Below the pieces are notes generated by a model. It did no database searches. It was not told where the DNA came from and saw only the letters and a list, made by a program, of their open reading frames with translations. From Aegilops tauschii subsp. strangulata (taxonomy: Eukaryota; Streptophyta; Magnoliopsida; Poales; Poaceae): a DNA stretch of 64,000 nt. A program made the translations under genes and the position numbers. Shown here one piece after another: positions 30,945-63,624 of the stretch; position 1 is the first letter of the stretch, and every line of letters starts with the position of its first letter. The stretch is taken from positions 120,992,318 to 121,056,317 of the forward strand of contig NC_053041.3 of the NCBI RefSeq assembly GCF_002575655.3. Direction: 5' to 3'.

Positions 30945-30986
30945 GTCCCACCTTCTAGCCGAAGGGCGCCCGCACCTGCTTATAAG
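30945..30986 (+). promoter_or_regulatory. U6-type (USE + TATA) promoter of CACTA1 Pol III unit D
   Basis: GTCCCACCTTC (30945-30955) matches the plant USE consensus RTCCCACATCG at 8 of 11 positions. CTTATAAG (30979-30986) follows after 23 bp. Plant Pol III snRNA genes have this arrangement with about 24 bp between boxes. It points away from ORF2 and antisense to both CACTA1 genes. Confidence 0.6.
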
Positions 30987-31009
30987 CCCCATCGCGGCAG
31001 CTGTCTCGA

Positions 31010-31158
31010 GCTCCTCTCTATTGCAGGCCTTCTGGGCCTACCTGTTCTGTGCTGCCCTGTGGGCCTATTGGGCCTTTGCGGGCCTGCATCCTGGCCCAAC
31101 AACAGGTTGGGTTTCTAGTCGTATGCATGCCGCTTTGGCCCAGTAGGCGGGCTTTTTT
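31010..31158 (+). ncRNA. Candidate Pol III small RNA, unit D (CACTA1)
   Basis: Predicted start G at 31010, exactly 23 bp after the TATA-like box, with GCTCCTCTC as in units A and C. Stem 1: 31064-31074 (CCTATTGGGCC) pairs with 31137-31147 (GGCCCAGTAGG), with one U-G wobble. Stem 2: 31081-31089 (GGCCTGCAT) pairs with 31123-31131 (ATGCATGCC), one mismatch. It ends in T6 (31153-31158), a Pol III terminator. About 149 nt. Function unknown; it has no open frame of note. Transcription is not shown by sequence alone. Confidence 0.5.
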
Positions 31159-31731: not shown

Positions 31732-34700
31732 TCAAATGCCAAAACACATAACTACCCTAACTATTACAGAGATTCCCTCCTGGGTGTGAAACACAGAAGA
31801 AAGTGATGATAGTGAAGCCGATCGCTTCCCAGATCTTTGGGTGTGAAACATTTTCTTCGCGTGTGTCCCTTTGCGCCGTAGCCATGGAAAATCTTCATCA
31901 TTTAACTGGATGCTCGGGTCAATATTCACTGTGAATGGAGCAATTTCATCAAACTTTTCATAATCTTCTGACATGTCTGTCTTGTCATCCACTCCCACGA
32001 TGTTTCTCTTCCCAGAAAGAACTATGTGGCGCTTTGGCTCATCGTATGATGCATTCGCTTCCTTATCTTTTCTTTTTCTCGGCTTGGTAGACATATCCTT
32101 CACATAGAAAACCTGTGCCACATCATTAGCTAGGACGAATGGTTCGTCTGCATACGCAAGATTGTTGAGATCCACTGTTGTCATTCCATACTGCGGGTCT
32201 TCCGTTACCCCATATCGTGTCATATTGACCCATTTGCACCGAAACAAAGGGACCTTCAAACCACGTCCATAGTCAAGTTCCCATATCTCCTCTATGTAAC
32301 CATAATATGTTTCCTTTCCTGTCTTGGTTGTTGCATCAAAGTGGACACCACTGTTTTGGTTGGTGCTCTTCTTATCTTGGGCGATCGTGTAAAATGTATT
32401 AACATTTATCTCGTACCCTTTGAAAGTCATTATATTCGAAGATGGTAACTGGGACAGCGAGTACAGGTCATCTTCAATAGAGGCGTCATGCATGGTACGT
32501 GTCTGCAACCAGCCGGCGAAACTCCTGGTTTTTCACGTGTAATCCAGTAATCAGACCGCTTCGGGTGTTTGGAGCGTAGAAAATTCTTGTGTTTGTCCAT
32601 ATACGGAGCCACCAAGGCGGAATTCTGTGTAACTGTGTAGTGTGCTTCAGTGAGAGAATGTCCGTCCATACATATTTTTTGATTCCCTCCTAGCGTGCCT
32701 TTTCCATCCAGTCTGCCCTTATGCCGCGATTCAGGAACACCAATCGGCTTAAGGTCAGGAATAAAGTCAATACAAAACTCAATGACCTCCTCATTTTCAT
32801 GGCCCTTGGAGATGCTTCCTTCTGGCCTAGCACGGTTATGAACATATTTCTTTAAGACTCCCATGAACCTCTCAAAGGGGAACATATTGTGTAGAAATAC
32901 AGGACCCAAAACGTTAATCTCTTCGCATAGGTGAACTAGGACATGCGTCATGATGTTGAAGAAGGATGGTGGGAACACCAACTCGAAACTGACAAGACAT
33001 TGCACCAAATCATTCTCTAACCTTGGTATGATTTCTGGATCGATTACCTTCTGAGAGATTGCATTGAGGAATGCACATAGCTTCACAATGGCTAATCGAA
33101 CGTTATCCGGTAGAAGCCCCCTCAATGCAACCAGAAGCAGTTGCGTCATAATCACGTGGCAGTCATGAGACTTTAGGTTCTGGAACTTTTTCTCTGCCAT
33201 GTTTATTATTCCCTTTATATTCGACGAGAAGCCAGACGGTACCTTAATACTGAGCAGGCATTCAAAGAAGATTTCCTTCTCTTCTTTGGTAAGAGCGTAG
33301 CTGGCATGACCCTGATGTATGCCGTCTTTTCCATGCATATGTTGCTGGTCCTCCCGTGCCTCAGGTGTATCTTTTGTCTTCCCATACACGCCCAAGAAGC
33401 CAAGCAGGGTCACGCAAAGATTCTTCGTCACGTGCATCACGTCGATTGCAGAGCGGACCTCTAGATCTTTCCAATAGGGCAGGTCCCAAAATATAGATTT
33501 CTTCTTCCACATGGGTGCGTGTCCGTCAGCGTCATTCGGAACAGGTTGTCCGCCAGGACCCTTTCCAAAGACTACCTTCAAATCCTTGACCATATCATGT
33601 ACATCAGCACCAGCACGGTGGCGAGGCTTCGTCCGGTGATCCGCCTCACCTTTGAAATGCTTGCCTTTCTTTCTTACGGGATGCCTGCTTGGAAGAAATC
33701 GATGATGTCCCAGGTACACATTCTTCCTACAATTGTCCAAATATATACTGTCGGTATCATCCAAACAGTGCGTGCATGCGCGGTATCCCTTGTTTGTCTG
33801 TCCTGAAAGGTTACTGAGAGCAGGCCAATCATTGATGGTCACGAACAGCAAGGCCTTTAGGTCAAATTCTTCCCCCATGTGCTCATCCCACGCACGTACA
33901 CTTGTTCCATTCCACAGCTGTAAGAGTTCTTCAACTAATGGCCTTAGGTACACATCAATGTCGTTGCTGTGTTGCTTAGGGCCTTGGACGAGCACTGGCA
34001 TCATAATGAACTTCTGCTTCATGCACAACCAAGGAGGAAGGTTATACAAACATAGAGTCACAGGCCAGGTGCTATGGTTGCTACTCTGCTCCCCAAAAGG
34101 ATTAATGCCATCTGCGCTTAGACCAAACCATACGTTCCTTGCGTCATCTGCAAACTCCTTCCCGTACTTTCTCTCAATTTTTCTCCACTGCCACCCGTCA
34201 GCGGGTACTCTCAACTTTCCATCTTTCTTACGGTCTTCTCTGTGCCATTGCATTGCCTTGGCATGCTCTTTGTTTTGGAACAAACGTTTCAACCGTGGTA
34301 TTATAGGAGCATACCACATCACCTTGGCAGGAATCTTCTTCCTGGGGCGCTCGCCCTCGACATCACCAGGGTCATCGCACCTGATCTTATAGCGCAATGC
34401 ACTGCATACCGGGCAAGCGTTCAAAATCCTCGTACTCACCGCGGTAGAGGATGCAGTCATTAGGGCATGCATGTATGTTCTGCACCTCTAACCCTAGAGG
34501 GCAGACAACCTTCTTTGCTTCGTACGTACTCTCGGGCAATTCGTTGTCCTTTGGAAGCATATTCTTTATCATTACCAGCAACTTTCCAAATCCCTTGTCA
34601 GACACACCATTCTCTGCCTTCCATTGCAGCAATTCCAGTGTGGTGCCCAACTTTTTCTTGTGAGCTTCGCAATTCGGGTACAACAATTTCTTGTGATCCT

Positions 34701-36430: not shown

Positions 36431-36460
36431 GCTTGACATTTGACCCTTTTTCTACTAGTG

Positions 36461-41478: not shown

Positions 41479-41734
41479 CACAGCTCGTAAACCTTAATAA
41501 AATAAAATAACATAAACTATAGTAACTACATTAAATAAACCTTAATAAATTAAGTAAAAATAGCAGTAGTAAAATAAATAAAAATAGCAGCAGTAAAATA
41601 AATAAAAATAAAATAATTAAAGTAAAATACATAAGTAATTAGAAATAAAATAAATAAGTTTTTTGTTGTAAGTAGCAACAAAACAAAACAAATAAAGCAA
41701 AAGAGAATAAAAAACAGAGGAAAAAAATTATGCC

Positions 41735-41815
41735 ACCTACTAGGCCACCACGGCCTGAATACGACTAGAAACCCATCCATGGGCCAGGATTCAGGCCCGC
41801 AGAAGGCCCAGACGA
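41735..41815 (-). repeat. Truncated copy of the Pol III RNA unit
   Basis: The 3' half of the unit A/C sequence (GGGCCTTCTGCGGGCCTGAA to TAGGTGGCATAA plus a T-run, minus strand) without promoter or 5' half. It is fused directly to transposase coding sequence at about 41812. Confidence 0.7.
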
Positions 41816-42131: not shown

Positions 42132-42392
42132 AGACTTTCTCCCGCAACTATTATGATGATACCATGCCAACTTTGTAATAGACGAGTATGATACCATTGT
42201 CCGTTTTGTACAAGAAGTGCATCTAGTTTTTGCCGTAACCCTCTCAACTTTCTTGCACATGCTATGTGGATGAAATGATGATACCATGCCAACTTTCAAC
42301 CTTTTCAGAGTTCATTTGAAATGCTTTTCAATTTTAGGGTCTTATAGCTCAAAATAATTAGTGAATGCATGAAAAATAACAGGCCACAAATT
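42132..42392 (+). other. CACTA2 spacer after transposase remnant
   Basis: Contains ACCATGCCAACTTTCAACC-type repeats and sequence matching 31560-31650 of CACTA1 in reverse complement. No gene. Confidence 0.6.
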
Positions 42393-42538
42393 AAAAATTA
42401 TGCCACCTACTGGGCCACCACGCCCTGAATACGATTAGAAACCCATCCAAGGGCCAGGATTCAGGCCCGCAGAAGGCCCAGTAGGCCCACAGGCATGTAC
42501 AGAGAGGTTAGGCCCGTAAGCCTGCTTTAGAGAGGAGC
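42393..42538 (-). ncRNA. Candidate Pol III small RNA, unit A (CACTA2)
   Basis: Minus strand. Predicted start G at 42538, exactly 23 bp after the TATA-like box, with GCTCCTCTC at the 5' end. Stem 1: 42475-42485 (GGCCCAGTAGG) pairs with 42406-42416 (CCTACTGGGCC), perfect 11 bp. Stem 2 near 42422-42430 and 42449-42457 has one mismatch. Ends in T5 (42397-42393). About 146 nt. Homologous to units C and D. Confidence 0.5.
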
Positions 42539-42561
42539 TCGACAGCTCAGGCGCACCGCAC

Positions 42562-42604
42562 CTTATAAACAGGTGCAGCTCTCTCTTAGCTAGCGAGTTG
42601 GGAC
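42562..42604 (-). promoter_or_regulatory. U6-type promoter of unit A
   Basis: USE-like GTCCCAACTCG (42604-42594, 9 of 11 with RTCCCACATCG), 24 bp, TTTATAAG (42569-42562). Confidence 0.6.
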
Positions 42605-42636
42605 TAAACTCACCACCACGCCGCTGTGCAAGGCCA

Positions 42637-42775
42637 TTGGTGCCGGTTGGTGGCACGAACCGGGACCAATTCCACCCTTTGGTCCCTGTTGGTGCCACGA
42701 ACCGGTACTAATGAGGCTGTGGCCCCACGAGCACCTTTAGTACCTGTTCGTGGCACGAACCGGTACTAGAGTATC
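42637..42775. repeat. Internal CCGGT/ACCGG palindromes of CACTA2 (first cluster)
   Basis: Imperfect inverted copies of GGTGCCGGTTGGTGGCACG and CGTGGCACGAACCGGTACTA, lying between divergent Pol III units A and B. Confidence 0.8.
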
Positions 42776-42793
42776 TTACTAAGCAGTTTTTCA

Positions 42794-42836
42794 GTCCCAC
42801 CTTGCTAGCTGAGAGGCACTAGGAGCGGTTTATAAG
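42794..42836 (+). promoter_or_regulatory. U6-type promoter of hairpin unit B
   Basis: USE-like GTCCCACCTTG (42794-42804, 9 of 11), 24 bp, TTTATAAG (42829-42836). Similar in sequence to the promoters of units A and C but pointing the opposite way. Confidence 0.6.
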
Positions 42837-42859
42837 CCCTGAGTGCAGAGACGATGAAG

Positions 42860-42991
42860 AAGAGGCGCAATGCTCACGTTGCTTAGCTTCAAGCCTTGAG
42901 GAATAAGGTAGACTGCATCGAGCTATGTGCAGTGCAGTCTACACTATTCCGAAAGGCTTGAAGCAAATCAATGAGCATTGCGCCTCTTTTT
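42860..42991 (+). ncRNA. Candidate Pol III hairpin RNA, unit B (CACTA2)
   Basis: The predicted start (24th base after TTTATAAG) is 42860, the first base of a long foldback. Stems: 42860-42876 with 42972-42988 (17 bp), 42886-42897 with 42953-42964 (12 bp), 42900-42905 with 42945-42950 (6 bp), 42908-42917 with 42933-42942 (10 bp), 15-nt loop. It ends in T5 (42987-42991). About 45 paired positions, like a miRNA or siRNA precursor. It does not resemble units A, C and D downstream of the promoter. Transcription and processing are inferred. Confidence 0.55.
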
Positions 42992-43766
42992 ATTTTTAAT
43001 AACTTATTACAACTCTGGACTTCTTTTGTTCCGACAAAATAAAATAATCTTTAATAAAATTTATGAAACTAAAATTAACAAAGTATTTTCTGTTCAAAAC
43101 ATTATAAGAAACCTCTATTATTATTGAAACTAAAATCATATAAAATTGATGCAACTAAAATTATCGAAGTATTTTCTGTTCAAAATCATTAAAAGCAAAA
43201 GGAATTTTCATAAAGAACTTTTTTTGATAGAAACTTTAATAGCAAAAAGAATTATCATAAAGTAAAATAAATAAGTAATTAGAAACAAAATAAAATAAAG
43301 TAAATAAGTTTTTTGTTGTAAGTAGAAACAAAACAAAATAAATATAGCAAAATAGAAAAAAAACTAAATACAGCAAAAAGAATTTTCATAAAGAACTAAT
43401 GGCACTAATAGAAAGTTTATATTTTTTCTAAAACTAATGGCACTAACAGACAGTTGGTAATTTTGCTGACCTAAAAGCAAAAAGAATTAAAAAATAAAGC
43501 AAAAACCAAAAGAAAATAAATAATGCAAAAAACAAAACAAAAAAACTGAAAAAAACTATTTTTATAGTAAAGTTAATCACAAACTTGTGATTCACACAAA
43601 TTTCATAGAATTCAAATTTTAACTATTTAAATTTGAAAACTAATGGCACGAACAGAAAGTTTATAAATTTTCTGACCTAAAAGCACAAAGAATTAAAAAA
43701 TAAAACAAAAAACAAAAGAAAATAAATAATGCAAAAAACAGAACCAAAAAACTGGATTTTTTTAAT
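42992..43766. other. AT-rich CACTA2 spacer
   Basis: A-rich sequence with repeated words (AAAATTATCGAAGTATTTTC, GCAAAAAGAATT). No gene seen. Confidence 0.5.
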
Positions 43767-43909
43767 AAAACTGCCACCTATTGGGCCACCACGGCCTGAA
43801 TACGACTAGAAACCCAACCTGGGCCAGGATTCAGGCCCGCAGAAGGCCCAATAGGCCCACAGACAGCACAGTGTGACATTAGGCCCGTAAGCCTGCATTT
43901 GAGAGGAGC
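43767..43909 (-). ncRNA. Candidate Pol III small RNA, unit C (CACTA2)
   Basis: Minus strand. Start G at 43909, exactly 23 bp after TTTATAAG, again GCTCCTCTC. Stem 1: 43845-43855 (GGCCCAATAGG) with 43777-43787 (CCTATTGGGCC), perfect. Stem 2: 43829-43837 (ATTCAGGCC) with 43793-43801 (GGCCTGAAT), perfect. Ends in T4 (43770-43767). About 143 nt. Versus unit A stem 1 has U-A for C-G; versus unit D stem 2 has A-U for C-G. Confidence 0.55.
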
Positions 43910-43932
43910 TCGAGAGGGCAGCCGCAGTGGGG

Positions 43933-43975
43933 CTTATAAACCACTCCGAGCCCCTCTCAACTAGCGAGGTGGGAC
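43933..43975 (-). promoter_or_regulatory. U6-type promoter of unit C
   Basis: USE-like GTCCCACCTCG (43975-43965, 10 of 11), 24 bp, TTTATAAG (43940-43933). The best match of the four. Confidence 0.65.
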
Positions 43976-43994
43976 TAAACTTTTGCCCGCGGGC

Positions 43995-44245
43995 AGCGCA
44001 AGGCCTTTGGTCCCGGTTGGTGGCACCAATCGGGACTAAAGGGGGCATTGGTACCGGTTCGTGGCACCAACCGGGACCAATGCCCCCCCTTTAGTGCCGG
44101 TTGGTGCCACCAACCGGGACCAAAGGCCGCCGCTTCCCGCCCTTTGGGCTGCTGAAAAGGGACCTTTGGTCCCGGTTGGTGGCACCAACCGGGACTAAAG
44201 GGTGGCATTTGTCCCGGTTGGTGCCACGAACCGGGACCAACGCCC
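43995..44245. repeat. Internal CCGGT/ACCGG palindromes of CACTA2 (second cluster)
   Basis: Several units of TTTGGTCCCGGTTGGTGGCA facing CACCAACCGGGACTAAAGG, directly before the ORF2 TATA box. Confidence 0.85.
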
Positions 44246-46199: not shown

Positions 46200-49100
46200 A
46201 TGGAGCACGGACGAGATGAGCAAGCAGAAGAGGTGTTGGGGGACATAATCTTAGCCGGAGGTTATATCTTGTCGTATCTTAACGACAATGATGGTCTGGA
46301 AGAACAGGGTGAAGAAGCAGGCTACGGTGATCGAAGAGTGGAGGAGGAAAGACATGATTATGATGGCTCCGGTGACCCAATGCTGGTGCAAGAAGGAGCC
46401 CGTGGTGACGGTTCCGGTGACCGAACAGAGTCCGGCCAGGTAAATATATTAGTTAAGCCTGTGCTAACTAGCTAATTGATGCATTCATTGTTTTGGTATG
46501 TACACATATTAATTAACACTCGTCTTTCTCTTTTTTCTAGCCCTCCGGATCGAGCACAACTTCGGTAAAGAGACGAGGCCCGAAGAGAAAGTTGCGCTCG
46601 GATGAAAGGTTTGAGATCACAGCAATCGCGCGCGACGGCCAACCGATTGAACCCCTCCGGACAAAGGATGCATTTGCTGCTCAGTGCGGGGTTCTAGTTA
46701 GGGACAAGATCCCGATCAGCATCCACCAATGGTATAAGCCTAATAAGGAAGACCCTAAGGTGTCTTATGTCAATGATATGCAGAAAGATGATCTTTGGAC
46801 TGAGCTGAAGGCAAATTTCACCCTACCGCCAGAGGAGGATCCGGAGAAGCCAGTTATAGAGCAATTAATCAAGTCTCATGCTCTTAAGAAGATGGCAGAC
46901 CTATTCAGGAGGTGGAAGAATGAGCTGAAAACGTTTGTCGACAAAGAAGATACACCAGAATTCATCGGCCGGTGTGAGAAGATCAGAGATCACTGGCCCG
47001 CATTTGTGGCCCACAAGACATCGGAAAAGAGTAAGAAGATGTCAGCGACAAACAAGAAGAATGCTGCGAAGAAGAAGCTTCACCATCGCACGGGGTCAGG
47101 TGGCTACCTCAAAGCCCGACCTAAGTGGGCCAAGGCTGAGAATGATCTGCTTGAAAAAGGGATCGAACCACAGACAATGAACTGGACAGACCGTTGCCGG
47201 ACTTGGTTCTTCGGGGCTGGCGGAACCTTGGACCCTGTATCAGGGAGGTGCGTTTGGACGAACGAGCTTTTGAGAATACCAGTCAAGAAGATTCAGCAAT
47301 ATATCGATAGAGCGCAGGAAGGGACGTTCGTTCCAGACAGAGAGAATGACGAGCTCACAATGGCCCTCGGGAATCCTGAGCACCCTGGACGGACACGAGG
47401 CACGCCAGGCTCCGTTCCGTGGAAGGCTGGTTTTCCGGACGTGGGTGGTTACAAAAGCCAGGAGAGGAGGAAAAAAGTGGAGCAGATCCAAATTCAGAAG
47501 CTGCACGAAAGGGTTCAAGCGCTAGAGGAACGAGACGGCAATCGACATGCCGAAACTGCCCCTGAAGCTACACCGCCATCTCAGCGAAGAAGCAGCGTGG
47601 CTTCCACCGAGCTGCTTCAGCTGGAGCATGCGGCTCCTGCTAGCTACCCTGTTGAGGATATAGACCTTAGAGTCACCCGCCAGGAGGGGCCGGGTTACTC
47701 ATATGGTCACTGCCAGAAGCTCGATGCCAAGATTAAAGACGGTGGGCCAAGGATGGGCTTAAGACCCGGCGGAGGCTTAAGGCCCGTAGTTACAATCATG
47801 GTTATGGAAGAACTTGTAGTGTAAGGCAAGAGTAGTTGAGAGTCCGAGCCGGACACTCTTATGAGCCGGCCAGGACTCTGAGAGCTGCAGGGCGTCAGCC
47901 TCCTTATATAAAGGGACGACCCGGCAGCAGTTTAAGGGCGACAACAATCTAATCGAGAACCGGGGATTGCAGTCTAGCTCCCTGGTGATCGTAATCCTAA
48001 TCAATACCACCTCAAACTGGACGTAGGCATTTACCTTCACCGTAAGGGGCTGAACCAGTATAACCCTCGTGTTCCTTATCCCACATTAACCCCTTCAAGC
48101 TTCCTAGCTGCGATGGCTCCACGACTAAGTCCTAGCTCGAGGACATCTGCCGTGACAATTCCATGACAGTTGGCGCCCACCGTGGGGCCAACGCACGGTG
48201 GATTTGAGTTCTTGAAGGGCAGCTTCGAAGGGCTCAAGGGATACGCTGTGGGCCGGATGACCAAGAGTCGTCGCGGCAAGCTCTACATCGACGATGCAAA
48301 CTGGGGCCCCGACGCCGGCTCAATTGAGTTCGGGTACCGGGTCCCATTCGGCGGAATTCATGTTTTCATTGGCAAGATTGGTGAGCCGGGCCCTGAGCCG
48401 GATCTCTGCGCCGATCTCGTCGAGACGGCTTAGCGTGTACGACCCGCCCGGGCCCGGCCTGCCTTAAAGCATGCTTTTGTGGGGTGTATCCATGGAGGGC
48501 TCTCTGATCCATCTGGATCTGGTGATGAGACGGCCGCCGGCTCTGACGGCGAGTCGGCCACCGATGAGTCAAACTCATTGTATCAACTTCAAGATGGCAG
48601 GCTCATGGGTTGTTCCGATGGTGACAGTATTCCGGACCCGTTTGAGCCGCCAAGTCAGGTCGGAGTCTTTATGGCCGGCGCGCAGCCTGTTCAGAACCCC
48701 GCTGCTGGAGCGGGAAACCCGGTGCCTTCTCTGGCTCAGGTGCTGATGGATCTCACGGATAAGATAACGACCCTGTTAACCGCCACGGTTGACCCGGCGG
48801 ATCAGGCTCAGCATGATGCAGAGGTAGCACAGTTAAAGTTCGATTTAGTGAAAGCTAAGGAGGAGCTTGCAGCAGAAGGGATCAGGCTGGCTGCGGAGAG
48901 GGCGGCTCTCGATGCCCAAACTCAGCTGATCCAGGTGCAGTCCTTCCAACTCACGATGGATCAGAACGCGGCCAATGAGGTCATGAGAAGGAGGCATCAA
49001 AAGGCCCATTCTAGACTCCCTCCAGTTTACGATCCACGCAACCTCTTCAACACGCCAGGTGCTGGGTCTAGTAACCCGCCAGGGGTCATAGTGCTTGGAT

Positions 49101-52100
49101 CTGGAGCCCCTATTCAGCCACGAGTGATGGGGCCTCCCCAGGTGCCCCCTGCCCCGCCTCAGTACGTGCCAATACCCCCGGGCCATTATAATAACCCGCT
49201 GGAGAACATGGTCGCTGCGGCAGCACGGCTGGCGGCTCTCCCAGTTGACGGCGACTCTCCAACGGCTATTGAAACCCGCCGGGTCAGGGAACTCCTTCAG
49301 ACAGCACTGGCGCAGCAAGAGGCGTACTCCTACAGCCGGGACAGGATCCACTCGACCCCTCGTCCAGGCCAGAGCCCGAGTTATAGCAGACACATGGTCT
49401 CCGCGACCGGCTCAAGTAACGTCCGACGCCATGACCCGCCTCCTGGCCATGGCCCGGCTCATAACAGAGCCTTTCACGTAGCGGACCAGGACAGAGCGTG
49501 GCAAGAGGCGGAGCAGGTGCCTCAATTGACGGCTTACCAGACCCCCCCGGCTTATCCGACGACTTCCGTTGATGTGGGTATCCCCACCAGGACTGGGGGT
49601 GTCCCTTGCTTAGTACCAGCTATCCGCAATGAACGTCTGCCCAAGGACTTCAAGGGCCCTAGGAAGGTGCCTAATTACACAGCGGACTTACAGCCTGCGG
49701 CCTGGATCGAGAGTTATGAGATGGCTATGGAGCTGCTGGAGGTCAGTGAGGCGGCCATGGCTAAGTATTTCACCATGATGTTAGATGGGACTGCCCGCAC
49801 TTGGTTGAAAGGGCTACCACCGAATTCCATTGGGTCTTGGGCAGAGCTGAAAGCCCGGTTCATCCAAAACTTTAAAGATACCTGTAGGCAGTCTATGCCA
49901 ATCGTGGATTTGACTAACTGTAAGCAGCAGGAGGGTGAGTCTACGACACATTGGGTTCGCCGGGTTAAGGAGATCATACACTCGTCAGACAAGATGGATG
50001 CCGGCTCAGCTGTTTTAATGCTGGAGCAGAATTGTCGTTTTGTGCCCCTGAAGATGAAACTCGGGCGGCTTAAGCGCGACTGCAGTGATATGGGTACTCT
50101 AATGGCGGCTCTTGTCAAGTATGCCGATTCGGATGGTACCAAGGATCCCCCTTCAGATGATGAAAGGACAGGGAAGGGAAAGAAGAACGGCAATGGCAAG
50201 GGTCCTCAGTTTAACCCGGGGAACCAAGGAGGAGGCAAGCGCAAGGCTGATGGCAGCCTAGAGTTTGTAGCCAACGCCAGCTCGCAAGGTAATAACCAGC
50301 GACGCAAGGGGAGGCCCCCTCCCCGAGGCGGCGGGTTAGGTCCGACGCTGGAGCAGCTGTTGAATGAACCTTGTCCAAGGCATGGCTCTAGAGAGAAGCC
50401 AGCGACTCATCTGTGGAAGGATTGTGCAATCATGAAGGCTTTTAAGAATTACAATGGCCCGGGCGGCGGCTCAGGCGCCGGCGGCTTTCATGGCCCGGGG
50501 GCGGCTCAAATTCTGGTCCTCAGAACTGTCAAGGGGGCTTTAATCAACAGTCTGGCCAGGGTCATCAACAGCAGCAGGGGGGCTATCAGACCAATCCAAA
50601 GCAGCTTAGCGGTGGACAGTATGATGTGTTTACCACTAGTTTGTACAAGCGAGATCAGAAGCTTCACAAGAGAGCTGTGCATGCTGTTGAGCCGGCGGTT
50701 CCATGCTACTTGCGGTGGTCTGAACAGCCTATAGTGTGGAGCAGGGAGGATCACCCTCCCCGGGTGGATAACCCGGGCCACCTGGCCTTAGTGGTGGCTC
50801 CTCAAGTGGGAGGATATAAGTTCACAAAGGTGCTCATGGATGGAGGTAGCAGCATCAACATCCTCTATTATGAGACTTTTCGCCGTATGGGGTTGGTTGA
50901 TAAGCACCTCAGCCAGTCAAACACTATCTTCCATGGTGTGGTACCTGGTAAGTCGGCTTATCCAATCGGCAAGATCGAATTGGAAGTGGCCTTTGGAGAT
51001 GAGAACAACTACAGGGTGGAAAAATTGACCTTCGAGGTGGTCAAGATAAGAAGTCCGTACCATGCTATATTTGGGCGACCGGCTTACGCCAAGTTCATGG
51101 CACGGCCGTGTTATGTTTACTTACAGCTCAAGATGCCGGGTCATAATGGGACCATTACGGTTCACGGCAGTCGGAAAGGTGGCCTTGGAATGTGAGGAAG
51201 GCGATGGAGCTTATACAGAATCTGTTTGTGCAACAGAGGAGTTGAAGTTTTACAAAGACAATGTTGACCCAACTGATATGACCTCTCTGAAAAAGCCGAC
51301 TACGGAGCATGAGCCGGCAATGAAATTTAAGTCAGCTGATGAGACTAAACTTGTTGATTTCGTTCCAGGAGACTCATCTCAGCAATTTAGCATCAGTGCC
51401 AATCTGGATCCAAAATAGGAAAGCGCGCTCATCGAGTTCATCCGTGAGAATAGGGACATCTTCGCATGGAAACCTTCTGACATGCTAGGTGTACCTAGAG
51501 AACTCGCTGAGCACACTCTTAATGTTGATCCAAAATTTAAGCCGGTCAGGCAGTTCCTTCGGCGGTTTAATGAAGAGAGGCGGAAAGCTATTGGGGAAGA
51601 GGTGGCCCGGCTCTTGGCGGCCGGGTTTATTGTTGAAGTTTTTCACCCAGAGTGGTTGGCTAACCCGGTGCTTGTACTCAAAAAGAACGGCACCTGGCAG
51701 ATGTGTGTGGACTATACGGACTTGAACAAGGTGTGTCCGGCTGATCCTTTTGCCCTCCCCCGTATTGATCAAATTATTGATGCTACGGCGGGTTGTGCAC
51801 GCTTAAGTTTCTTGGATGCTTATTCCGGATATCATCAGATTAAGATGGCAGTTAAGGACCAGGAGAAGACAGCGTTCATCACTCCCTTTGGAGCCTTCTG
51901 CTATGTGTCTATGCCCTTTGGGCTCAAATGTGCACAGGCGACTTACCAGCGCTGTGTACAGAACTGTCTTCATAAACAGATTGGGCGCAACGTTCACGCT
52001 TATGTGGACGATATTGTGGTTAAATCCATAAAAGAGGAAACCCTGATAGATGATTTAAGAGAAACATTTGATAATCTCCGGGTCTACAAGATGATGCTTA

Positions 52101-55100
52101 ACCCAGCCAAGTGTGTCTTTGGTGTTCCTGCAGGCAAACTATTGGGGTTTTTGGTTTCTGACAGAGGCATTGAAGCTAACCCGGAGAAGATCAAGGCCAT
52201 CACCTCCCTGGCTAAGCCGGCGTGTATAAATGACGTTCAGCGCTTGGCGGGTCGCATCGCTGCTTTAAGCCGGTTTATAAGCCGTTTGGGTGAGAAAGCC
52301 ATGCCATTGTATCAGTTGATGAAGAAAACTCATAACTTTGTCTGGAATGATGCAGCTAATACCGCTTTTGAGGATTTGAAGAAGCAGCTGGCAGAGCCCC
52401 CAGTCCTTGCTGCTCCGGTTGATAAGGAGCCCCTACTACTGTATGTGGCGGCAAACGCAAGAGCTGTTAGTGTGGCTATTGTGGTGGAGCGCAAGGAGGA
52501 GGGTAAGGAGCATCCGGTTCAGCGGCCGGTTTATTATGTCAGCGAAGTACTCATTGAGTCCAAGCAGCGGTACCCGCATTGGCAGAAGCTTGTGTATGGT
52601 GTGTTCATGGCAAGCCGGAAACTTAAGCATTATTTTCAGGGTCATCCCATCACTGTGGTTAGTGCTGCCCCTCTTGGTGATATCATTCAAAACAGAGAGG
52701 CCACAGGGAGAATTGCTAAGTGGGCTATAGAACTTGGACCTCATGGTCTCAAATATGTGCCATGCACTGCTGTTAAATCTCAGGCCTTGGTGGATTTCAT
52801 CAATGATTGGACAGAGTCACAAGTGCCCGAGCAAAAGCCGGATAACACGTATTGGACTATTCACTTCGATGGGTCCAGGCAGTTGGAGGGCTTGGGGGCT
52901 GGCGTTGTATTGGCTTCCCCTAAAGGTGACAAGTTCCATTATGTGCTACAGTTGATGTTTCCTTGCACTAACAATGCAGCTGAGTATGAGGCCTTGCTCC
53001 ACGGTCTTCGGATGGCTAAGGAGATGAGCTTGAGCCGAGTGAGGTGCTTCGGTGACTCGGACTTGGTGGCTCAACAAGTATCAGGCAAGTGGGACTCTAA
53101 GGACCCTCTCATGGCGGCTTATCGCCGCGAAGTGGATGCCATTGCTGGGCACTTTCAGGGCTACCAAGTAGAGCACATTGATCGCAGGAAGAATGAGGCG
53201 GCTGATGCTCTAAGCCGGCTAGGCTCTCAGCGAAAGCCGGTGCGGCCTAACACTTTCCTGGACGTCCTGTATAGCCCTTCGGTTAAGTTGCCTACGGAGG
53301 AAGACTTGGCTGTCCCTGACCCGGAGGCACGACTGGTGGCGGCTCTCCATATCATACCAGACTGGACAATGCCATATCTGGCTTACATGACCCGGGGCGA
53401 GTTGCCTGAGGATGAAACCTTGGCCAGGCAAATAACCCGGCGGGCTAAGTCAATGATTGTTATCGATGGCGAGTTGCATCACCGCAGTGTTACGGGAGCG
53501 TTCCAGCGTTGTGTTTCCCCTGAGGAAGGTCAAGAAATCTTGCGTGAGATCCATGAAGGGGATTGTGGCCACCACGCTGGCTCAAAGTCTCTTGTGGCCA
53601 AGGCCTTTCGCCATGGTTTTTATTGGCTGACGGCACATGCTGATGCGGAGGACTTGGACAGTAAATGTGATGGTTGCCAGAGGTTCTCACGACGGGCTCA
53701 TGTGCCGGCTCAGGAGTTGAGGATGATCCCAATCACTTGGCCCTTTGCGGTCTGGGGGCTTGACATGGTTGGGCCTTTTAAAAGGTCCAAGGATAAGAAG
53801 ACCCACCTCTTGGTGGCAGTTGACAAATTCACAAAGTGGGTGGAGGCTGAGCCAGTTAGCAAGTGCAATGCAGCCACGGCGGTTCAATTTATGAAAAAGG
53901 TGATTTTCCGCTTTGGTTTTCCGCACAACATTATAACTGACAATGGCACCAATCTCTCCAAAGGTGCCATGGAAGAGTTTTGTCAACGAGAGCATATCCG
54001 ACTTGATGTTTCCTCAGTGACTCATCCTCAATCGAATGGTCGAGCTGAGAGAGCTAATCAGGATATTCTGAAGGGCATCAAGCCCAGGCTTTTGGTCCCT
54101 TTACAACGGACGCCGGGTTGTTGGGTGGAGGAGTTGCCCTCCGTGTTATGGAGCATCAACACTACTCCCAACAGATCTACAGGTTTTACACCTTTCTTCA
54201 TGGTTTATTGAGCGGAAGCAGCCCTCCCCAGTGACATCCGTCATGACTCACCTCGCGTGGCGGCTTACATTGAGGCGGATAATGAACAGGCGCGCCAAGA
54301 TGCTCTTGACTTGTTGGACGAATAGCGTGATGTGGCAGCAGCCCGTTCAGCGATTTACCAACAAGACCTGCGCCGTTATCATAGCCGTCGGGTTAAATCC
54401 CGGGTCTTCCAGGAAGGCGATCTCGTGCTCCGGCTCATCCAGGATCAAACAGATGCACACAAGTTATCCCCGCCTTGGGAAGGGCCCTTTGTGGTCAGCA
54501 AGAACTTGCACAACGGGTCATATTACCTCATTGACGTTCGGGAGCACAAAGATTCACGTAAGTCGGAGGAAGAGACCCGTCGGCCGTGGAACATAGCTCA
54601 GCTTCGGCCTTACTACACTTGAGCCACTGGCTCTCGTGGTGTACATATTTCTCTCAGCCATGTATATATTATAATAAGCAATAAAGCAGGACCTCTGTCC
54701 TTTTTTCTCATCCAAATATGCACGTGTTGTTTTCATTGCAAGATTACATGATGACTTAAAGGAGGATCCGGCTTACGATCGTATTCGAATCTAGCCGTAA
54801 GCAATAACGCCACTTGGGGGCTTCCTGTTCAAACATGGGTCGTATTCGAACGAAAGAGAACATAGCTGTCGATACCCATTTGATTGGCAAAGTGCCGAGC
54901 TCATTTGGAGGTTACCTTTGGTCATATTTGAATCATAGTTTAACCCCTCTGGGAACCGACGTGGATCGTATTCGAATCAGCGTCGTTAAACAATTCTTAA
55001 AATCACTTGGGGGCTTCCAGTTCAAACATAGGTCGTATTCGAACCAAAGAGAACATAGCTGTCGGTACCCTCTTGATTGGCATCGCCACACCCACTGGGG

Positions 55101-63600: not shown

Positions 63601-63624
63601 TAAAAGCCCCTTTTCCTACTAGTG

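What the first reader, a model, noticed from the sequence alone, without database searches (positions are those of the whole stretch)
42393..43975. CACTA elements carry U6-type RNA polymerase III gene cassettes (units A, C and D)
Three homologous units, A (42604 to 42393), C (43975 to 43767) and D (30945 to 31158 in CACTA1), share a USE-like box, 23-24 bp, a TTATAAG box, exactly 23 bp and a purine, then a 143-149 nt region ending in T4-T6. The 23 bp between TATA and predicted start vary in sequence but not in length. The first transcribed bases (GCTCCTCTC) are conserved. USE plus TATA with about 24 bp spacing is how plants select Pol III for U6-type genes. I know of no such cassette described in CACTA transposons.
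Basis: partly seen in the sequence, partly recalled or inferred. Interest (0 to 1): 0.92.

Follow-up and report, generated by a model that had tools for sequence, protein, structure and literature searches.

The report
Transposon-borne U6-type microRNA hairpin genes
A very abundant wheat-family DNA transposon carries small hairpin-RNA genes, one of which matches the published microRNA miR9654, behind a promoter that has the layout of the host's own U6 (RNA polymerase III) genes.

Summary
In detail: A, C and D have a USE-like box, TTATAAG, 23 bp to a purine, and 143-149 nt ending in T4-T6. A fourth unit, B (42794-42991), has the same promoter.

The own genome allowed a direct test. All 15 exact-match U6 genes have USE-25 bp-TTATAA. 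In 78 CACTA loci 168 of 169 USE/TATA pairs have 25 bp. Seven of 8 U2 (Pol II) loci have 32-33 bp to TATAA, against 26 here.

The bodies are hairpins. B's hairpin runs from the predicted start to T5 and contains exactly the published miR9654c and its star, with 2-nt 3' overhangs. A/C/D share a hairpin with compensatory changes. A third hairpin (E) has the same promoter.

Best reading: the CACTA spacer is a small array of U6-type Pol III hairpin genes, at least one a microRNA gene (1,223 copies of its core). Pol III use, and dicing of A/C/D/E, are inferred. CACTA microRNAs (rice miR820) and U6-promoter microRNAs (Cuscuta) were known separately; an incomplete search found no report of the combination.

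The parts
42594..42604 (-). Unit A: USE-like box GTCCCAACTCG (9 of 11)
42562..42568 (-). Unit A: TATA box TTATAAG, 25 bp from USE
42393..42538 (-). Unit A: predicted 146-nt transcript, leader GCTCCTCTC, 3' hairpin (about 42494-42398), ends in T5
42794..42804 (+). Unit B: USE-like box GTCCCACCTTG (9 of 11)
42830..42836 (+). Unit B: TATA box TTATAAG, 25 bp from USE
42860..42991 (+). Unit B: predicted transcript, near-perfect hairpin from its first nucleotide to T5 (-83.3 kcal/mol, z -12.7)
42884..42905 (+). Published miRNA* UAGCUUCAAGCCUUGAGGAAUA, exact
42947..42968 (+). tae-miR9654c UUCCGAAAGGCUUGAAGCAAAU, exact
43965..43975 (-). Unit C: USE-like box GTCCCACCTCG (10 of 11)
43933..43939 (-). Unit C: TATA box TTATAAG, 25 bp from USE
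43767..43909 (-). Unit C: predicted 143-nt transcript with 3' hairpin, ends in T4
30945..30955 (+). Unit D: USE-like box GTCCCACCTTC (8 of 11); one base shorter here than the D-like copy L061
30980..30986 (+). Unit D: TATA box TTATAAG, 24 bp from USE
31010..31158 (+). Unit D: predicted 149-nt transcript with 3' hairpin, ends in T6
41723..41811 (-). Partial copy of the 3' part of the A unit (95.5% over 89 bp), without its promoter
32433..34487 (-). Tnp2 transposase ORF (PF02992, E 2.8e-79) of the CACTA element beside unit D
46541..47818 (+). Transposase_24-like ORF (PF03004, 22.7 bits, below the 28.7 cut-off) beside units A-C
36444..36460 (-). CACTA terminal sequence CACTAGTAGAAAAAGGG

Best explanation
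The spacer of these CACTA transposons is a small array of hairpin-RNA genes driven by U6-type (type 3) Pol III promoters. USE and TATA, set 25 bp apart, recruit the host snRNA activating complex and Pol III. Transcription starts 21-23 nt after the TATA box, runs through a hairpin and stops at T4-T7. In unit B the ends of the transcript are the base of the hairpin. Dicer cutting about 22-24 nt in from that open end would release exactly the published miR9654c/miR9654c* duplex. Shown: promoter anatomy, its identity in layout with U6, hairpins, T-runs, copy number, and exact match to a published miRNA and star. Inferred: Pol III occupancy, end-measured dicing, and that A/C/D/E hairpins are diced.
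For: 15 of 15 U6 genes of the same genome have USE-25 bp-TTATAA and 14 of 15 have GTTTA before the USE, as A and C do (B and D do not). 7 of 8 U2 (Pol II) loci have 32-33 bp to TATAA and 64-66 to the start. Spacing 25 in 168 of 169 USE>=9/11 + [TG]TATAA pairs in 78 CACTA loci (L001-L008 were picked by a promoter pattern, the rest by the miR core). Free of promoter selection: B 70 of 70 at 25 between the aligned boxes (one has a broken TATA, one a USE insertion) and 69 of 70 at 23; A/C 69 of 70 at 25 and 66 of those 69 at 23; E 19 of 20 at 25. Types A, B, C, D-like, E and F differ in sequence (mean identity of seven cluster representatives, one of them an A copy with a deletion, 0.60 in the 25-bp spacer and 0.37 in the 23-bp stretch). 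All six spacers resemble U6 spacers more than shuffles do (0 to 3.2% of 500 shuffles reach them). Hairpins: B z -12.7; A/C/D pairs kept 86.7% against 27.5-43% when slid, with double changes; E -56 to -66 kcal/mol in the 18 of 20 copies with a T-run. miR9654c and star exact in B, 2-nt 3' overhangs at both ends. In the B alignment divergence rises from 3% in the body to 23% beyond the T-run.
Against: No transcript-level evidence of Pol III was available. RGCCCR motifs, present upstream of 15 of 15 U6 genes, are absent in 4 of 4 window units. 18 of 54 A-type copies matched only the 5' part of the body; in 16 of 51 the next T-run is 253 nt away and the hairpin is gone although the promoter stays. 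Whole A, C and D transcripts fold only moderately (z -2.5 to -2.7), and one C-type 3' part gives z -1.78. The A/C/D pair test uses a structure taken from one of the rows, which favours it. In B 3,014 of 3,052 cells pair but only 1 of 52 pairs shows a double change. Within A and C copies the promoter is not clearly more conserved than its surroundings. U2 locus L096 has its best USE match 52 nt from the start and no TATA. No published small RNA was found for A/C/D/E (one search of six substrings). An EST-type accession (CA737852) stands in the miR9654c row of PMC4591353; its meaning was not checked, and it could point to a polyadenylated transcript.
Confidence: 0.8

Rival explanations
1. Ordinary Pol II miRNA/hairpin genes with a TATA box, the USE-like box being a coincidence of the TTTAGTCCC repeat ends of CACTA.
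For: CACTA palindromic repeats end in GGGACTAAA, the complement of TTTAGTCCC. Plant miRNAs are usually made by Pol II (stated in passages of PMC8664484, and PMC10745700).
Against: USE identity reaches 10 of 11, spacing is the U6 value and not the U2 value, and the bodies end at T-runs right after or close to the hairpin in A, B, C, D and E.
Confidence: 0.1
2. Dead passengers: a U6-type hairpin cassette was captured once and is copied by transposition without being transcribed now. This overlaps with the best explanation, since the promoter would still be of U6 origin.
For: Many near-identical copies; shallow within-class conservation; hairpin lost in an A subclass; RGCCCR motifs missing in the window units.
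Against: 22-nt miR9654c and star sequences are published from wheat, though which copies produce them is unknown; several unrelated payloads keep the same promoter geometry.
Confidence: 0.15
3. The TTATAA box (a palindrome) serves a Pol II promoter on the opposite strand, fed by the GGCCCA-rich body of A/C/D.
For: In A and C the opposite strand reads GGCCCA repeats followed by CTTATAAAC.
Against: Does not explain the USE, its fixed spacing, the T-runs or the hairpins; B and E lack the GGCCCA body.
Confidence: 0.04

Closest known systems
Plant U6 snRNA genes (type 3 Pol III promoter, USE + TATA)
   Same: USE, 25 bp, TTATAAG, GTTTA before the USE in A and C, start about 54 nt after the USE (15 U6 genes of the same genome)
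   Different: Payload is a hairpin, not U6; carried by a transposon; no RGCCCR motif within 116 bp upstream in the four window units
Cuscuta campestris interface-induced miRNA loci (Hudzik et al. 2023; original not held; known here through the commentary PMC10226582, whole text, and passages of PMC10745700)
   Same: USE 54-55 bp from the start; uncapped primary transcripts that end at poly-T
   Different: There the loci belong to a parasitic plant and its trans-species miRNAs; here they are inside CACTA elements of a grass
Rice miR820 (PMC3459959, passages read)
   Same: miRNA encoded inside CACTA elements
   Different: Five copies, target OsDRM2 known; the words TATA and upstream do not occur in its main text and promoter only in construct passages; here 1,223 core copies and no known target
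tae-miR9654 family (PMC4029127, PMC4591353, PMC3997425, PMC4015866; passages read)
   Same: Unit B contains the mature 22-mer and the star exactly
   Different: CACTA occurs in none of the three main texts searched for it, and Pol III not in PMC4591353

Membership tests
U6-type plant Pol III promoter | USE close to RTCCCACATCG (consensus recalled) | tested here: met
   A 9, B 9, C 10, D 8 of 11; the 15 U6 genes score 9-11
U6-type plant Pol III promoter | USE-TATA spacing of the Pol III class, not the longer Pol II class | tested here: met
   25 bp as in 15 of 15 U6 (D 24); U2 6-7 bp longer to TATAA in 7 of 8
U6-type plant Pol III promoter | T4 or longer terminator at the end of the transcript | tested here: met
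   T4-T6 in A, C, D and T5 in B; in 70 B copies 0 of 347 T-run cells substituted, two copies with a shorter run; 16 of 51 A-type copies have no T-run near the body
U6-type plant Pol III promoter | Monocot-specific upstream RGCCCR elements (recalled) | tested here: not met
   0 in 116 bp upstream of each of the four window units, 2-4 upstream of each of 15 U6 genes
U6-type plant Pol III promoter | Uncapped Pol III transcript | not testable with these tools
   No RNA data held
MIRNA locus (unit B) | Hairpin with miRNA/miRNA* duplex, 2-nt 3' overhangs | tested here: met
MIRNA locus (unit B) | Sequenced mature miRNA and star | tested here: met
   Published wheat sequences match exactly; which copy produced the reads is unknown
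MIRNA locus (units A, C, D, type E) | Sequenced mature small RNA | tested here: inconclusive
   No paper holds any of six arm substrings; no read data held
CACTA (En/Spm) transposon | CACTA termini and Tnp2-type transposase | tested here: met
   Beside D: Tnp2 PF02992 and one end CACTAGTAG. For A-C only an end at 63624 and a sub-threshold Transposase_24 match; no left end was found
Described Rfam families | Match at gathering score | tested here: not met
   0 matches in the window

The most novel reading that the evidence does not exclude
A DNA transposon has taken over the host's snRNA promoter grammar to run a multi-gene Pol III hairpin array that supplies miRNAs genome-wide. Pol III transcription would let the copies be expressed although their Pol II genes are silenced by RNA-directed DNA methylation. 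The palindromic repeats that sit upstream of the USE in the four window units, in place of the U6 RGCCCR elements, could couple hairpin output to the transposon's own DNA-binding protein. The hairpins would be mobile regulators acting on the host, in the manner of rice miR820.
Probability: 0.3. Interest if true: 0.92.

Novelty: new variant of a known kind. Interest (0 to 1): 0.82.

Why it matters
If true, a plant miRNA family (miR9654) catalogued as ordinary is made by a different polymerase from a transposon with over a thousand copies of the miRNA core. It would extend Pol III miRNA genes beyond parasitic plants to the wheat tribe, offer a route by which a silenced transposon stays expressed, and provide compact natural Pol III hairpin promoters. 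It also makes a testable claim about how transcript ends set the miRNA register.

Tried and rejected
Known RNA family: no Rfam match at gathering score. With relaxed settings on 42300-44050, eight sub-threshold matches appear, among them MIR5387 at the CACTA palindromes and mir-4803 and mir-962 on the minus strand of the B hairpin.

Whole A/C/D transcript as one conserved structure: RNAalifold on the mixed 81-row alignment gave nothing useful (-9.1 kcal/mol). One reason is a C subclass (12 rows by my rule) that does not fit the common 3' hairpin. Class-wise analysis showed that hairpin.

Selection within classes: attempted with column divergence. TATA and T-run are low, but these boxes hold few C, so cytosine deamination in methylated DNA could explain part of it. 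I do not rely on it.

Self-targeting: within the window and all fetched loci, sites complementary to miR9654c with 4 or fewer mismatches have the letters of miR9654-type hairpin arms; I judged this by their sequence, not site by site. A genome-wide target search did not complete.

Predicted targets in print differ between papers and I drew nothing from them.

Full report
OBSERVATION. The boxes are not a chance hit: 4 occurrences against a shuffle mean of 0.06. A fourth unit, B, lies between A and C. The window lies in a 4.10-Gb genome of 692 contigs. That size and the contig lengths are close to Aegilops tauschii (inference: C1 is 507.5 Mb; chromosome 1 of Aet v5.0 is 502.0 Mb in a passage of PMC8664484).

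PROMOTER TEST AGAINST REAL snRNA GENES. I fetched the 15 places that match the first 29 nt of U6 exactly and the 8 that match the first 32 nt of U2 exactly. U6: USE 9-11 of 11, 25 bp to TTATAA in 15 of 15, then 21-22 nt to the first G after TTATAAN, and GTTTA just before the USE in 14 of 15. U2: 32-33 bp to TATAA and 64-66 to the start in 7 of 8; the eighth, L096, has its best USE match 52 nt from the start and no TATA, and may be a pseudogene. Measured to TATAA the CACTA cassettes have 26, the U6 value.

FAMILY TEST. An exact 23-mer pattern of the promoter occurs 3,108 times in the genome, its reversed control 0 times. The miR core TTCYGAAAGGCTTGAAGC occurs 1,223 times, control 0. In 78 loci, 168 of 169 distinct USE>=9/11 + [TG]TATAA pairs within 10-45 bp are at 25 bp; the exception is a 17-bp pair in L014 with an unlike sequence (15 U6 pairs counted apart). 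Because L001-L008 were chosen by a promoter pattern, I repeated the count on L009-L078, chosen on the miR core alone. Of 72 core sites 70 are distinct: all 70 have 25 bp between the aligned boxes and 69 have 23 to the start; one has a broken TATA box and one an insertion in the USE. A/C-type copies found by body homology: 83 merged hits, minus 12 duplicates and 1 without a 5' end, leaves 70; 69 have USE>=8 and TTATAA, all at 25; 66 of 69 have 23 to the start. Clustering gives seven clusters, of which one (L042) is an A copy with a deletion downstream of the TATA box; the types A, B, C, D-like, E and F remain, and their spacer sequences differ while the length does not. The distance to the T-run is not fixed and follows the body variants.

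THE BODIES ARE HAIRPINS. B folds from its first predicted nucleotide to its T5 (-83.3 kcal/mol, z -12.7). It contains exactly UUCCGAAAGGCUUGAAGCAAAU, published as tae-miR9654c (PMC4591353), Ta-miR036-3p (PMC4015866) and tae_44 (PMC3997425), also listed for durum wheat (PMC7076468). It also contains exactly the star printed with tae_44. Both ends of the duplex have 2-nt 3' overhangs. The star begins 24 nt after the predicted start, and about 22 nt lie between the end of the miRNA and the T-run end, so counting from the transcript ends would give the register (inference). Across 59 B rows 3,014 of 3,052 cells pair, but only 1 of 52 pairs shows a double change, so covariation in B is weak. A, C and D share a 3' hairpin: z -3.85, -4.34 and -3.92 for the 99-105 nt 3' parts, z -2.5 to -2.7 for the whole transcripts; one fetched C-type 3' part gives -1.78. 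On pairs taken from the window C unit 2,517 of 2,904 cells pair against 794 to 1,255 of about 2,890 when slid by 1-3 columns; the structure comes from one row, which favours it. Compensatory types: C-G in A, T-A in C, T-G in D at one pair; A-T in A/C and C-G in D at another; two more in the outer stem. The 81 rows left out copies without a T-run within 175 nt and identical rows (51 A gave 32 rows, 47 C gave 44). A C subclass (12 rows) does not fit these pairs; the one row folded has its own hairpin (z -4.55). Type E (81 exact core copies; 20 fetched): 19 of 20 have USE at 25 bp, the twentieth (L114) a damaged USE; 18 of 20 reach a T6-T7 after the hairpin; 17 of 20 have the leader GCTCCTCTC of A/C/D.

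WHAT SPEAKS AGAINST. The 15 U6 genes carry 2-4 RGCCCR-type motifs in about 115 bp upstream; the four window units carry none. That these motifs are required in monocots is recalled, not read. In place of them the four units have CACTA palindromic repeats upstream. 18 of 54 A-type copies match only the 5' part of the body (copies too close to a locus end were dropped), and in 16 of 51 the hairpin is gone while the promoter stays. Within-class conservation is too shallow to prove selection. In wheat about half of the small RNAs matching CACTA elements fell in their outermost tenths (PMC2996936, passages), not in the interior. No RNA data could be examined.

CONTEXT. D lies beside a Tnp2 transposase on the opposite strand, with a CACTA end at 36460. 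A, B and C lie upstream of a weak Transposase_24-like ORF. In loci that show them together, A and B are about 190 bp apart and divergent, and C faces B at roughly 0.75-1.4 kb, as in the window.

NOVELTY. Rice miR820 shows that CACTA elements can encode a miRNA (PMC3459959, passages). Cuscuta shows that plant miRNAs can have U6-like promoters (PMC10226582, whole text; original not held). A study of Ae. tauschii reports many predicted pre-miRNAs in En/Spm elements (PMC4855405, passages); miR9654 and polymerase III do not occur in its main text. Of the 20 papers listed (of 22), none holds both 'upstream sequence element' and 'CACTA'. Other answered searches. The direct searches pairing CACTA with Pol III or miR9654 failed or met the cap, so absence from print is weakly supported.

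ODDS. The passenger rival overlaps with the best explanation, so the stated odds are not exclusive and do not sum to one.

Noticed in passing
window 41723-41811: An 89-bp copy of the 3' part of unit A without its promoter, 95.5% identical.
   Followed up: partly
L047 (G000:C1:49946172, 49948317, 49950462): Three miR9654 core copies exactly 2,145 bp apart on one strand: the cassette region looks tandemly triplicated.
   Followed up: no
window 42689-42759: Sub-threshold Rfam match to MIR5387 (39.3 bits, cut-off 69) on the CACTA palindromic repeats; that miRNA family may itself be CACTA repeat derived.
   Followed up: no
L005, L006, L008 and others (A-type, first T-run at 253): A-type cassettes that keep promoter and leader but have lost the hairpin downstream.
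   Followed up: partly
L096: A U2-like locus without a TATA box at the usual distance, possibly a pseudogene.
   Followed up: no
units A, C, D and type E (L029, L102-L121): The leader GCTCCTCTC is shared by unrelated hairpin payloads but absent from B; its role is unexplained.
   Followed up: no
window 51419-54205: Gypsy-type reverse transcriptase/integrase ORF between the Transposase_24-like ORF and the CACTA end at 63624, probably a nested insertion.
   Followed up: no
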